Shown in pieces: positions 2,239 to 5,636 of a stretch of 8,008 bases of DNA (position 1 is its first letter; every line of letters begins with the position of its first letter). Both the position numbers and the translations under genes were made by a program. A model generated the notes under the pieces. The model saw only the letters and a program-made list of their open reading frames with translations, made no database searches and was not told the DNA's origin. The stretch comes from Candidatus Hermodarchaeota archaeon (GTDB lineage: Archaea; Asgardarchaeota; Hermodarchaeia; Hermodarchaeales; Hermodarchaeaceae), in contig JAEOSV010000295.1 of the NCBI GenBank assembly GCA_016840185.1, positions 1-8,008 on the forward strand, given 5' to 3'.

Positions 2239-2382
2239 CTAGGACACGTATTTCTCAGGGTCTTTATCAAATTCAGTTTTACAGCCTGGTGCACAGAAGT
2301 AGTAGGTTTTGCCCTTATACTTTGACGTCCATTTTGCTGTTCGTTCGTTGACTTTCATTTTACAGATTGGATCAATTGCCAT
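2239..2382 (-). CDS. Small YHS/TRASH-like metal-binding protein
   Basis: A 47-residue protein that is essentially one YHS domain. It begins MAIDPICKMKV and continues to a YYFCAPGC motif. The cysteines C7, C30 and C34 give C-x22-C-x3-C, within the spacing reported for the related TRASH motif, so metal (likely copper) binding is inferred. The open frame extends upstream to 2508, but the start at 2382 is chosen because GAGGTGG at 2394-2388 sits five bases before this ATG and because the longer version would run through the divergent promoter. It is divergent from the PadR-TRASH regulator gene and close to copA, whose C-terminus carries a very similar domain (shared AIDPICKMKV). By position and size it resembles CopM, the small TRASH metallochaperone of Sulfolobales cop clusters. 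That role is inference. Confidence 0.88.
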   Translation of the reverse strand: MAIDPICKMKVNERTAKWTSKYKGKTYYFCAPGCKTEFDKDPEKYVS

Positions 2383-2387
2383 AAGGT

Positions 2388-2394
2388 CCACCTC
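2388..2394 (-). promoter_or_regulatory. Ribosome binding site deciding the YHS protein start
   Basis: On the minus strand GAGGTGG is followed by five bases and then ATG (2382-2380). This strong Shine-Dalgarno argues for the 47-residue product over the 89-residue reading. Confidence 0.8.
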
Positions 2395-2434
2395 GCCAGT
2401 TGGTTGAATATCGGGGGAGTATGCAACTGCATTA

Positions 2435-2445
2435 TTTATATATAT
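2435..2445. promoter_or_regulatory. Putative TATA box of the divergent promoter
   Basis: TTTATATATAT matches the archaeal box A consensus TTTATATA. Read rightward, it would put transcription start near 2465, about 30 bases before the regulator ATG at 2497. Read leftward, the same AT tract (TATATAAAT on the minus strand) would put a start near 2415, about 33 bases before the YHS gene ATG. No clear BRE is visible. Bidirectional use is inferred from geometry only. Confidence 0.65.
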
Positions 2446-2449
2446 CGGA

Positions 2450-2463
2450 TTGGATATATCCAA
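2450..2463. promoter_or_regulatory. 14-bp perfect palindrome, candidate operator
   Basis: TTGGATATATCCAA is a perfect palindrome. Symmetry continues imperfectly over 2443-2470, with matching pairs 2447/2466, 2446/2467, 2444/2469 and 2443/2470. It lies between the putative TATA box and the predicted start of the regulator-copA transcript, a position where a bound dimer would block transcription. The PadR-type regulator encoded next to it is the obvious candidate ligand. Confidence 0.6.
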
Positions 2464-2496
2464 GTCGTTACAAAACCGACCAATTGTGTGACCAAC

Positions 2497-2946
2497 ATGA
2501 GTACACAACCCCTTGAGACCGTTTTAGACGATCTCGCGAAATTCTACATTCTCCTGGTACTCCACGAAGGAACCTGTCATGGCTATGGTATAATCCGAAA
2601 ATACCATAATCGGACGGGGCGGTCACTCAGTGCCGGCACCCTTTATCCCTTCTTGCAACAACTTGAGCAACAGGACCTCGTCAAATGTGAGGATAAACCC
2701 GTCGGAAAACGCCCTCGACGTGAATGCTGTCTTACGTCCAAGGGTCGTCGTTCGGTAAGTAATCTCCTTGAACGATTTGCATCAATCACAGCCGTCGCTT
2801 TTGAATCAAATCTACAGGTGTGCGCCAGTTGTGGTTGCAAAGTCTATGAAGGTGCCCATATCGAAGAAATTAACGGAAAACATGTGGCATTTTGCTGTCA
2901 TCATTGTGCTGGAGCATATAAACAGCAGATTCGGAAATCAATTTAA
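2497..2946 (+). CDS. PadR-like winged-helix regulator with C-terminal TRASH metal-sensing domain
   Basis: A 149-residue two-domain transcription factor. Residues 13-95 are a PadR-type winged helix: LAKFYILLVLHEG, then HGYGI at 28-32, and GTLYPFLQQLEQQDLV at 47-62 as the recognition-helix region, followed by a basic wing (KPVGKRPRR). The usual PadR C-terminal dimerisation helices are short or replaced by a TRASH-type domain at about 106-145: C109, C112 and C114 (CASCGC) and C133, C134 and C137 (FCCHHC). C112-x20-C133-x3-C137 fits the TRASH signature, and three extra cysteines could add ligands. Copper or related soft-metal sensing is inferred from the domain and from copA 20 bases downstream. 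The start at 2497 is preferred over an upstream TTG at 2404 because the fold begins there and the longer form would include the promoter. The RBS is weak (GTGA at 2488-2491). Probably autoregulated through the adjacent palindrome. Confidence 0.88.
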   Translation: MSTQPLETVLDDLAKFYILLVLHEGTCHGYGIIRKYHNRTGRSLSAGTLYPFLQQLEQQDLVKCEDKPVGKRPRRECCLTSKGRRSVSNLLERFASITAVAFESNLQVCASCGCKVYEGAHIEEINGKHVAFCCHHCAGAYKQQIRKSI

Positions 2947-2966
2947 GGAAAAGGTAGTGAAGAACG

Positions 2967-5636
2967 GTGAACGAACAAGAGAAAAAGGACATGGAAACAG
3001 AACGTATTTCTTTGCGCATTGATGGAATGCACTGTGCTGCTTGTGTCGCCACCATTGAAAAGGCATTACTCCAACAGAAGGGTGTTGAGAAAGCCTCGGT
3101 GAACCTCCTCGAAGAAAAAGCCACAATTGAATATATCCCGGAGCAGGTATCACGAGAAGCACTAGAAGAGGCTGTGGCATCAACAGGCTATACACCGAAA
3201 CGCGCTACCATGACACTAACCCTCTCTCCTACACCTCGCTCCGACGAATGGTCTTACATTAAAGAAACAGTCGAAGCTATTGATGGAGTTCTTTCAGTTT
3301 CAGAACATGTTATGTCTGGGCGATTAGTCATCGAATATGACGAAGTCCAAGTTACCCTTAAGGTTGTTCGGAAGCAACTCAATACAATTGGTTTTGACAT
3401 CGTCGCAGAAATGACCACTGATATTGATCGGGAAGCAATGACGCGAAAACATGAAATTCGTTATTATTCCTTACGCCTTACATTTACGGTTCTCATCACC
3501 ATTCCTATTGTCATAATCTCGTTCTTCCCTTGGCTCATCACTCCCTATCTTCCACCTGGAATCACAACCGCAGTCGTGTTATTCCTTCTAACAACACCGG
3601 TCCAATTCTATGGTGGATATCCCTTTTACAAATCCGCGTTAAATGCTGCAAGACACGGGAAAACGAATATGGACACTCTAATCATGCTCGGAACCAGCGT
3701 AGCTTACTTCTATTCCGTTGCAGCCACTTTCATACTCCCTAGCCAGGAAGTGTTCTATGGTTCAGCTGCTATGTTGCTAAGCTTCATCCTGTTAGGACGG
3801 ACGCTTGAAGCCATTGCGAAGGGCCGAACCTCTCAGGCGATTCGTGCACTCATGGACTTACAACCAAAAACCGCCGTGGTTCTCCGTGAAAGTGAAGAAA
3901 TCATCATACCAACGGATGAAGTCGAAGTAGAAGACCGACTCCTCGTTCGCCCCGGTGCACAGATTCCAGTTGATGCGTATGTCGTTGAGGGACAGTCCTC
4001 GGTCAACGAAGCAATGATCACTGGTGAATCCATTCCTGTTAGCAAAAAGGTGGACGATGATGTTGTTGGTGGCACCATTAACGAAACCGGAATTCTCATT
4101 ATCGAAGCCACAAAAGTTGGTTCGGATACGGTTCTAGCCCAAATAATCAAAATGGTCGAGGAGGCACAAACCCATAAGCCCCCAATTCAACGAAAGGCTG
4201 ATGCCATAGCAGAGAAATTCGTACCCTTCATCATCTTATTATCGATAATTGTGTTCAGCGCCTGGTTGATTTTAGGTACATATACACCTTGGTTTCCTGG
4301 GCTTACTTGGGTCACGGCTTTAGGTTTTTCAATTGCCGTATTAGTCGCAGCTTGTCCGTGTGCTTTAGGGTTAGCAACACCGGCGGCACTCATGGTTGGA
4401 ATTGGTCGCGGGGCACAACTCGGTATTCTAATCAAAACTGGAGAAGGATTGGAAGTCATTCCTCAAGTAAATAAAATGGTGTTTGATAAAACTGGCACGT
4501 TAACCACTGGAAAACCTACTGTGACTGACATTATTCCCGCTGGTGATATCGATTCGAAGGAGGCCCTTACCCTCATAGCCACAGCGGAAAAATACAGTGA
4601 ACATCCCTTAGCCAATGCCATCGTGCAATATGCTGAAGATCATGATGTTCAATTCATGGAGATTGATGACTTTGATTCAATTACTGGAAAAGGCGTAAAA
4701 GCTTCTGTTTCCGGGTTCACCATCGATGTGGGTAATGACACATACATGCAAGAAAGCCGGGTGGATATCGGAGAACTGGAACCACATCTGGCGCAGCTGC
4801 AAAAGGATGGGAAAACCACTATTTTTGCTGCAAAAGATGGAAATCTCCTCGCGTTAATTGCGGTAGCAGACACGTTGAAGCCGCATTCTGCTCTCACTGT
4901 TGAACAGCTACAGAAGATGAACATTGGTGTGGTGATGCTCACTGGCGACAAACTTCGCACGGCTGAAGCAATTGGTCGAGAAGCAGGCATTACAGAAGTT
5001 ATTGCCGAAGTTCTTCCAGGGGATAAGGCTCAGAAAATTCAAGATCTCCAAACTGAAGGACACACGGTAGCAATGACTGGTGATGGAATCAATGATGCAC
5101 CCGCATTAGCTCAAGCAGACGTTGGGATTGCCCTCGGTTCAGGTACTGATGTATCCGTTGAAACCGGAGATATTGTCCTTGTACGTGACAATCTCCTCGA
5201 CGTGGTGGCTGCAGTACAACTCGGAAAAAAGACCGTATCAAAAATCCGACAAGGCTTCTTTTGGGCGCTCATTTACAACATTGTACTTCTCCCAATTGCG
5301 GCGGGTGTTCTCTATCCCTATGTTCACCTGCGCCCTGAGTGGGCTGCCCTCGCCATGGCGCTATCAAGTGTGAGTGTTGTATCCAACGCTCTCCTGTTGC
5401 AACGGTTCAAACCTCTACCCATATCTGTTGAATCTACAGAGGTTGCAGGTCTAGAATCTACAAAACCCAAGAATGCCATTGACCCAATCTGTAAAATGAA
5501 AGTTGAAACTACAACTGAGCTCCACAGTGACTACAAAGGAAAACGGTACTTTTTCTGTTCATCTCACTGTAAGACTACCTTCGATGCAAATCCAGAGCAA
5601 TATGAAAATCAAGACATAATCAAAGGGAAACAGTAA
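2967..5636 (+). CDS. copA: Cu+/Ag+-exporting P1B-1-type ATPase with C-terminal YHS domain
   Basis: An 889-residue membrane pump that couples ATP hydrolysis to export of monovalent copper or silver. Domains in order: an N-terminal HMA domain (about 14-79) with GMHCAAC, C23/C26; a second HMA-like fold (about 83-149) lacking CxxC; four membrane helices (about 169-280); the actuator domain with T352-G-E-S; helices 5-6 with the C463-P-C465 translocation motif; D507 in DKTGT as phosphorylated aspartate; H546-P547 in the nucleotide domain; GDGINDAP at 705-712; and helices 7-8 with Y770-N771 and M797-x-x-S800-S801, the P1B-1 (Cu+) signature. An additional YHS domain follows, with C842, C864 and C868. 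At 889 residues it is longer than usual for CopA because of the second HMA-like fold and the tail. The start is GTG at 2967, preceded by AGGTAGTGA (2952-2960). ATG 2991 is a less likely alternative since its AGG is only two bases away. Likely co-transcribed with the regulator. Confidence 0.96.
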   Translation: MNEQEKKDMETERISLRIDGMHCAACVATIEKALLQQKGVEKASVNLLEEKATIEYIPEQVSREALEEAVASTGYTPKRATMTLTLSPTPRSDEWSYIKETVEAIDGVLSVSEHVMSGRLVIEYDEVQVTLKVVRKQLNTIGFDIVAEMTTDIDREAMTRKHEIRYYSLRLTFTVLITIPIVIISFFPWLITPYLPPGITTAVVLFLLTTPVQFYGGYPFYKSALNAARHGKTNMDTLIMLGTSVAYFYSVAATFILPSQEVFYGSAAMLLSFILLGRTLEAIAKGRTSQAIRALMDLQPKTAVVLRESEEIIIPTDEVEVEDRLLVRPGAQIPVDAYVVEGQSSVNEAMITGESIPVSKKVDDDVVGGTINETGILIIEATKVGSDTVLAQIIKMVEEAQTHKPPIQRKADAIAEKFVPFIILLSIIVFSAWLILGTYTPWFPGLTWVTALGFSIAVLVAACPCALGLATPAALMVGIGRGAQLGILIKTGEGLEVIPQVNKMVFDKTGTLTTGKPTVTDIIPAGDIDSKEALTLIATAEKYSEHPLANAIVQYAEDHDVQFMEIDDFDSITGKGVKASVSGFTIDVGNDTYMQESRVDIGELEPHLAQLQKDGKTTIFAAKDGNLLALIAVADTLKPHSALTVEQLQKMNIGVVMLTGDKLRTAEAIGREAGITEVIAEVLPGDKAQKIQDLQTEGHTVAMTGDGINDAPALAQADVGIALGSGTDVSVETGDIVLVRDNLLDVVAAVQLGKKTVSKIRQGFFWALIYNIVLLPIAAGVLYPYVHLRPEWAALAMALSSVSVVSNALLLQRFKPLPISVESTEVAGLESTKPKNAIDPICKMKVETTTELHSDYKGKRYFFCSSHCKTTFDANPEQYENQDIIKGKQ

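What the first reader, a model, noticed from the sequence alone, without database searches (positions are those of the whole stretch)
2239..5636. Compact copper island: PadR-TRASH sensor, free YHS protein and YHS-tailed CopA
Seen: a 47-residue YHS protein divergent from a two-domain regulator, which is followed after 20 bases by a P1B-1 ATPase with a YHS tail. Known: Sulfolobales cop clusters pair a TRASH-containing regulator (CopT/CopR), a small TRASH protein (CopM) and CopA. Inferred: this is a parallel system in which all three products carry a Cys-x(20-22)-Cys-x3-Cys metal module and the DNA-binding part is PadR-type. A three-way sharing of one metal-binding module across sensor, carrier and pump is an attractive and possibly undescribed design.
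Basis: partly seen in the sequence, partly recalled or inferred. Interest (0 to 1): 0.72.

Follow-up and report, generated by a model that had tools for sequence, protein, structure and literature searches.

The report
Archaeal copper switch with shared metal-binding domain
An archaeal gene cluster pairs a copper pump and a tiny metal-binding protein with an unusual type of metal sensor, and the same DNA switch site sits in front of copper-pump genes elsewhere in related genomes, so it looks like a real and little-known copper control system that can now be tested.

Summary
In detail: a 47-aa YHS protein (2239-2382, -), a PadR winged-helix protein with a C-terminal TRASH module (2497-2946, +) and, 20 bases on, a CPC-type copper ATPase with HMA head and YHS tail (2967-5636, +). 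It is not unique: in 81 loci (window plus the best 80 of 160 confirmed), 49 regulators lie next to a P1B ATPase. New here is an operator, TATATC-N6-GATATATC (window 2441-2460), on the TATA box. GATATATC stands within 150 bp of the regulator start in 50 of 81 loci versus 8 of 478 other promoters. In trans it marks 15 of 18 copper-type pump genes but 0 of 27 other heavy-metal ATPase genes and 0 of 7 Bathyarchaeal CPH pumps. In 16 Asgard genomes all 21 exact sites face a regulator, CopA, CopB, free YHS or YHS-tailed ABC-exporter gene. Best reading: a PadR-TRASH Cu(I)/Ag(I)-responsive repressor; binding, metal and direction are inferred. Limits: the CopA tail is often absent; TRASH and YHS are only distantly related; more distant regulators (0 of 16) lack the site; two genomes carry the site at copper pumps without a detected regulator; two sites stand at TRASH-less PadR genes.

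The parts
2239..2382 (-). free YHS protein, 47 aa (candidate Cu chaperone/buffer); ligand pattern D4-x2-C7-x22-C30-x3-C34
   Evidence: ligand pattern of YHS from PMC4626032 passages
2435..2442 (+). TATA-box-like TTTATATA; its reverse reading could serve the YHS gene
   Evidence: promoter role inferred
2441..2460 (.). predicted operator TATATC-N6-GATATATC (inverted repeat), overlapping the TATA-like box
2450..2463 (.). 14-bp perfect palindrome TTGGATATATCCAA within the operator
2497..2946 (+). PadR-TRASH regulator, 149 aa (ATG start)
2821..2907 (+). TRASH module of the regulator, residues 109-137: C109-x2-C112-x20-C133-C134-x-H136-C137
2967..5636 (+). CopA-type P1B ATPase, 889 aa, GTG start, CPC motif
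3012..3194 (+). N-terminal HMA domain of CopA (residues 16-76)
5478..5612 (+). C-terminal YHS tail of CopA (residues 838-882)

Best explanation
The cluster is a self-contained copper (or copper/silver) export switch of a Hermodarchaeota-like Asgard archaeon. The regulator is a PadR winged-helix dimer whose C-terminal TRASH module (four to six thiol/imidazole ligands) is the metal sensor. Without metal it sits on the inverted repeat TATATC-N6-GATATATC over the TATA box in the 114-bp divergent promoter and blocks both directions. Cu(I) or Ag(I) binding to the TRASH cysteines releases it, and the free YHS protein, the regulator and CopA are made together; CopB-type pumps elsewhere in related genomes answer through the same site. 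The free YHS protein buffers or carries the ion and the YHS tail is a docking or loading site on the pump. Shown by computation: gene order, domain content, conserved ligands, the operator-like site, its link to copper-type pump genes and its in-trans recurrence. Inferred: that this protein binds that site, the metal, the direction (derepression) and the carrier role.
For: Regulator-ATPase adjacency in 49 of 81 loci, 23 of 35 representatives below 70% identity. GATATATC within 150 bp upstream of the regulator in 50 of 81 loci, versus 8 of 478 other upstream regions of the same loci; among all 256 8-mer palindromes it leads with 50 of 81, the next has 11. Repeat with spacer N6 in 10 of 24 Asgard and N7 in 33 of 57 other regulator promoters at 11 of 12 matches or better, shuffles at most 0.3. 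In trans (regulator on another contig or, once, 48 kb off): GATATATC at 10 of 13 CPC pumps and 5 of 5 Asgard CPH pumps, versus 0 of 27 other P1B ATPases, Fisher 2.4e-9. In 16 Asgard genomes all 21 distinct exact sites lie at regulator (9), CopA (6), CopB (4), free YHS (1) or ABC-exporter-with-YHS (1) genes. Model: PadR fold, mean pLDDT 87.7, top PDB matches Rv3488 and LmrR. All YHS domains detected in Hermodarchaeal genomes G001-G005 lie in this island.
Against: No metal, binding or expression data. Out of sample: of 20 further regulators not among the 81, 3 of the 4 closest have the site and 0 of the 16 more distant ones. In a draw of 148 Asgard genomes the association of exact sites at such genes with the regulator (12 of 39 versus 2 of 109) rests on genomes already searched; of the 24 other regulator-bearing genomes none has an exact 20-base site at such a gene. 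G114 and G149 carry the site at CopB/CopA but no PadR-TRASH protein was found; G149 has a contig of at least 2.59 Mb. Sites in G044 and G133 stand before PadR genes that match only the PadR part, so other PadR proteins may use a like site. At least 10 of the 18 new sites of that draw lie inside ORFs, so look like chance. 25 of 81 regulators have no P1B ATPase nearby, among them a Bathyarchaeal clade of 12. 19 of 81 regulator promoters lack even a near match. The CPC pumps of G018, G020 and G029 lack the site. Spacers N8 (7 of 24) and N15 (10 of 57) are also raised, partly because half-sites overlap.
Confidence: 0.7

Rival explanations
1. The same switch, but for another soft metal or for thiol stress (Cd, Hg, Zn or oxidants); CopA-type pumps are simply its effectors.
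For: The closest solved fold by structure search is the PadR protein Rv3488 (recalled as cadmium-responsive); TRASH domains bind other ions too, e.g. Cd in L24e (PMC4626032 passages).
Against: The site marks CPC CopA and His-rich CPH CopB-type genes and is absent from 27 other P1B ATPase genes; the window pump and two CopB-type targets exceed the copper-subfamily cut-off TIGR01511.
Confidence: 0.13
2. PadR-TRASH is an activator (or dual regulator) like Pyrococcus CopR, not a repressor. This shares all but the direction with the best explanation, so the odds overlap.
For: On the YHS side the operator lies upstream of the TATA-like box; CopR sites lie upstream of BRE (PMC7830388 passages).
Against: On the CopA side of the window, and in Bathyarchaeal promoters shown, the site overlaps or follows a TATA-like box, the usual place for a repressor.
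Confidence: 0.2
3. GATATATC is a promoter element or site of another factor; the regulator's neighbourhood is coincidental.
For: Sites occur in two genomes without a detected regulator and before two PadR genes without a detected TRASH part; 16 distant regulators lack the site.
Against: 8 of 478 control promoters and 0 of 27 other P1B ATPases; the site stands before the regulator itself in 50 of 81 loci.
Confidence: 0.08

Closest known systems
Archaeal cop cluster with Lrp-type HTH-TRASH regulator (CopR/CopT), CopA and CopM (Sulfolobales, Thermococcales)
   Same: TRASH-bearing regulator beside a P1B copper ATPase and, optionally, a small TRASH/YHS-type carrier; divergent promoter (PMC7830388 passages)
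   Different: DNA-binding part is PadR, not Lrp; PF08394 found in 0 of 16 genomes checked; site TATATC-N6/7-GATATA instead of TTNNCAWWWTGNNAA; CopB, a free YHS gene and an ABC exporter in trans
PadR-family regulators (Rv3488, LmrR)
   Same: winged-helix fold and long C-terminal helix
   Different: the C-terminal TRASH module is outside the matched part of all 53 PDB sequences found
Bacterial Cu-ATPases with YHS domain and the M. phlei adenylyl cyclase YHS copper sensor
   Same: YHS as a copper-linked module (PMC4626032 abstract start and passages)
   Different: here with a TRASH regulator, free YHS protein and shared operator-like site

Membership tests
PadR family | PadR winged-helix domain | tested here: met
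   PF03551 50.6 bits, cut-off 27; Foldseek top matches are PadR proteins
PadR family | operator of the ATGT-N8-ACAT type (recalled) | tested here: not met
   conserved repeat is TATATC-N6/N7-GATATA; the recalled type is not universal in the family
TRASH domain | C-x19-22-C-x3-C with conserved ligands (recalled definition) | tested here: met
   C112-x20-C133-x3-C137; C133 and C137 in 81 of 81, C112 in 80 of 81
TRASH domain | Pfam score above cut-off | tested here: not met
   PF24273 19.4 bits of 27; PF11494 20.5 of 27
Lrp-type CopR/CopT cop cluster | Lrp/AsnC-type HTH with Arc_trans_TRASH | tested here: not met
   regulator is PadR; PF08394 in 0 of 16 genomes (13 Asgard, 3 Bathyarchaeal), control rings in Sulfolobus and Haloferax
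Lrp-type CopR/CopT cop cluster | P1B copper ATPase partner and optional small carrier | tested here: met
Lrp-type CopR/CopT cop cluster | copper-dependent regulation | not testable with these tools
   needs experiment
P1B-1 Cu(I) ATPase | CPC in TM6 and MxxSS in TM8; copper subfamily score | tested here: met
   AACPCAL, MALSSVSVVS; TIGR01511 603.9 of 397 bits
P1B-1 Cu(I) ATPase | N-x6-YN in TM7 (recalled) | tested here: not met
   G-x6-YN; G in 10 of 47 ATPases counted, all CPC
YHS domain | PF04945 above cut-off | tested here: met
   free 62.2, tail 62.3 bits, cut-off 30.3

The most novel reading that the evidence does not exclude
PadR-TRASH proteins are an undescribed family of copper sensors of Asgard archaea (Hermod- and Thorarchaeota above all) and Bathyarchaeia, built by fusing a TRASH module to a different DNA-binding fold than Lrp-type CopR, with their own operator whose half-site spacing changed by one base between clades, and a regulon that joins CopA, CopB, YHS carriers and a YHS-tailed ABC exporter through one family of metal modules.
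Probability: 0.6. Interest if true: 0.75.

Novelty: new variant of a known kind. Interest (0 to 1): 0.65.

Why it matters
It gives some archaeal relatives of eukaryotes and the Bathyarchaeia a defined, testable metal-response circuit: one sensor, one site, named targets. It shows the same sensor logic (HTH plus TRASH) with a second DNA-binding fold, and offers a natural one-base change of operator spacing between clades for studying how a dimeric regulator and its site co-evolve.

Tried and rejected
Considered and rejected: that the gene order is a one-off; that the regulator is Lrp-type CopR; sigma-70 promoter and terminator scans, uninformative for an archaeon; the 10-mer RGATATATCY genome-wide, too common in AT-rich genomes, so the 14-letter spaced form was used; PDB with the TRASH piece alone gave nothing significant (best E 0.11), the free YHS little (best E 0.0044). 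A first count of 11 of 14 CPC pumps in trans was mended: one search showed a second regulator beside the pump of G030 (L129), which is now left out (10 of 13); CPH pumps L136 and L196, near their regulator, were also taken out of the in-trans count (5 of 5 left).

Left out or not seen: the 80 weaker loci were not returned. Of the P1B ATPases, L137 (32% identity), L139 and L141 (no CPx motif found by my pattern), L146 (CPH, Heimdallarchaeal, GATATATC just after the start) and the regulator-adjacent pumps were left out of the counts; three partial hits (G022 C336, G003 C415, G009 C370) were not fetched; L180 failed my first ORF test and was dropped from the 27 controls (it has no GATATATC). Two of the 10 positive CPC pumps (L126, L130) have the site just after the longest-ORF start, where the true start is unsure.

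Literature (open-licence PMC only, so absence is weak evidence; listings seen unless said): 'TRASH domain' with archaea and copper 10 papers; PadR with 'TRASH domain' 0; PadR, copper, archaea, CopA 7; YHS domain, copper, ATPase 4; PadR, metal, Rv3488 2; CopT/CopM/TRASH/Sulfolobus 7; Asgard/copper/CopA/P-type ATPase 576, 20 listed; 'TRASH domain' with regulator 25; PadR, Asgard, regulator 12, 10 listed; Bathyarchaeota, copper, TRASH 1. By title and abstract start none describes this system. Passages only were read of PMC7830388 and PMC4626032.
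Full report
What is there. The window holds, in order, a PAS histidine kinase (47-2203, +), the 47-aa YHS protein (2239-2382, -), the PadR-TRASH regulator (2497-2946, +), CopA (2967-5636, +), a receiver-domain protein (5769-6215, +; in-frame ATG at 5850), two small proteins on the minus strand and a metallo-beta-lactamase-fold gene. The finding's coordinates and motifs hold. No whole genome is held for the window. Regulator identity (81% to L001) and the tree place it with Hermodarchaeota, and flanking genes recur in Hermodarchaeal contigs.

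Relatives. The protein search gave 53 matches, the window's own included; the few with an organism name are Promethearchaeota or Thorarchaeota, one Bathyarchaeota. A scan of species genomes confirmed 160 loci and returned 80: titles are Hermod-, Thor-, Loki-, Heimdall- and Freyarchaeota, many Bathyarchaeota, Brockarchaeota, one Nitrososphaerales, some unnamed archaea, and two titled as bacteria that I take for misbinned contigs. In 49 of 81 loci (window included; some ATPases are partial at contig ends) a P1B ATPase lies within 600 bp of the regulator, in 3 within 3.5 kb, in 25 there is none, and 4 contigs end too soon; of 35 representatives below 70% identity, 23 are adjacent. Adjacent regulators are spread over the tree; one Bathyarchaeal clade of 12 is wholly non-adjacent. 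Its members lie beside ORFs of the lengths of a FAD oxidoreductase-SPFH block that I identified by Pfam only in L046.

Architecture varies. All six Hermodarchaeal loci have YHS divergent from regulator and CopA (in L006 the contig ends inside CopA). Thorarchaeal CopA of L010, L011 and L015 carries two YHS tails. Bathyarchaeal loci often have ATPase plus YHS divergent from the regulator, with HMA pairs or an N-terminal TRASH motif on the pump. The CopA tail is present in the window, L003 and L005 and absent in L001, L002 and L004; the window tail is 53-80% identical to Hermod and Thor tails, 40% to a Loki tail and 60% to the window's own free YHS, so the tail looks old and sometimes lost. The three-way sharing is thus not the conserved part; regulator plus copper pump plus a YHS somewhere is.

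The module. YHS ligands are proposed to be one Asp and three Cys (PMC4626032, passages). The regulator has Cys109 where YHS has that Asp, and adds C134 and H136. Profiles of the two align with three cysteines in register, but weakly (probability 30%, P 5e-4 for one comparison); in genome G010 the only YHS-model match (sub-threshold) is the regulator's own TRASH part. The regulator model (28 sequences, mean pLDDT 87.7) shows the PadR winged helix, a long helix 81-102 and a separate hairpin-plus-helix module; its best PDB matches are PadR proteins.

The operator-like site. Upstream regions share the palindrome GATATATC: 51 sites in 12.1 kb within 150 bp of regulator starts (50 of 81 loci) versus 22 in 935 kb elsewhere, of which several lie before ATPase or YHS genes; 8 of 478 control upstream regions have it. 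With a second half-site it forms TATATC-N6-GATATA in 10 of 24 Asgard promoters and TATATC-N7-GATATA in 33 of 57 others (at least 11 of 12 matches), shuffles at most 0.3; spacers N8 and N15 are raised too. Counting GATATATC or a near-exact repeat, 62 of 81 regulator promoters have a site. In the window it overlaps TTTATATA at 2435-2442. Out of sample, 20 regulators not among the 81 were fetched: 3 of the 4 closest have GATATATC, none of the 16 more distant. The site thus belongs to this branch of the family, not to every PadR-TRASH protein.

Tests in trans. The motif came from regulator promoters, so sites away from the regulator are the independent test. In nine Asgard genomes first searched, second sites lay before CopB-type ATPases in two Hermodarchaeal genomes and before a free YHS gene in a Thorarchaeal one. 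Seven more were searched. Of the 21 distinct exact sites in these 16 genomes, 9 face the regulator (three shared with divergent YHS), 6 CopA, 4 CopB, 1 a free YHS gene and 1 an ABC-exporter operon whose ATPase has a C-terminal YHS domain; three of the 16 genomes have no exact site. For pumps in trans, judged with regulator positions: 10 of 13 CPC pumps and 5 of 5 Asgard CPH pumps have GATATATC in a 310-bp stretch around the start, versus 0 of 7 Bathyarchaeal CPH pumps and 0 of 27 other P1B ATPases (Fisher 15 of 18 versus 0 of 27, 2.4e-9). In the earlier set of 21 copper-type pumps GATATATC was found in 16, every other of the 256 palindromes in at most 1.

Wider draw. In 148 genomes of the phylum, 39 have the regulator at E up to 1e-25 and 27 an exact 20-base site: 17 of 39 with and 10 of 109 without the regulator (Fisher 8.5e-6); sites at copper, YHS or regulator genes, 12 of 39 and 2 of 109 (1.6e-6). 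This is not independent: all 12 are among 15 genomes already searched, and none of the other 24 regulator-bearing genomes has an exact site at such a gene. The two without a regulator, G114 and G149, have CopB or CopA behind the site but only weak PadR matches. Two further sites stand before PadR genes without a TRASH match. Of the 18 new distinct sites, 17 were inspected or placed by coordinates; at least 10 lie inside ORFs and look like chance; the one at G096 C109 was not inspected.

Replacement of CopR. The Lrp-type TRASH family PF08394 is found in 0 of 16 genomes (13 Asgard, 3 Bathyarchaeal; not the same 16 as above), while the control search rings in Sulfolobus and Haloferax. YHS matches occur in 16 of 16 of these genomes (15 above cut-off), and in Hermodarchaeal G001-G005 all of those detected lie in this island.

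Verdict. A well-supported copper-type regulon with a PadR-TRASH regulator in Hermod- and Thorarchaeota and Bathyarchaeia; binding, metal identity, direction of control and carrier role are inferred. It is a new variant of the archaeal cop cluster rather than a new kind.

Noticed in passing
window 47-2203 and 5769-6215: A PAS histidine kinase and a single-domain response regulator bracket the copper island; both are found again beside the island in Hermodarchaeal relatives, so a link of the two-component pair to metal response is possible.
   Followed up: partly
L005 6368-7429, L006 6365-7426: Regulator fused to an N-terminal HSDR_N (type I restriction R-subunit N-terminal) domain, checked by Pfam in L005; role unknown.
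   Followed up: partly
L040, L042, L046, L047, L050, L053, L054, L061, L073: Bathyarchaeal regulators divergent from a block of ORFs of like lengths; in L046 these are a FAD oxidoreductase, two unknown proteins and an SPFH/zinc-ribbon protein. All nine have GATATATC upstream of the regulator.
   Followed up: partly
L202 1774-11183: Metal island with an ABC exporter ATPase carrying a YHS tail, an HMA-YHS fusion protein, a CPH CopB-type pump and two more P1B-type ATPase genes.
   Followed up: partly
window 2967-5636: TM7 has G instead of the usual N (recalled) in N-x6-YN; shared by 10 of 47 ATPases counted, all CPC.
   Followed up: no
G009 C185 5051-5098, G007 C32 12974-13021: Thorarchaeal copA promoters carry arrays of overlapping half-sites at 14-bp steps, suggesting cooperative binding.
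   Followed up: no
L207 (G044), L209 (G133): Exact operator-like sites stand 49 and 26 bases before PadR genes that match only the PadR part; a like operator may be used by other Asgard PadR proteins.
   Followed up: no
window 6219-6695 and 6643-7098: Two minus-strand small proteins without a Pfam family above cut-off, found again beside the island in Hermodarchaeal relatives.
   Followed up: no
L019, L064: Loci titled Firmicutes and Latescibacterota carry this archaeal-type cluster or regulator; probably misbinned contigs.
   Followed up: no
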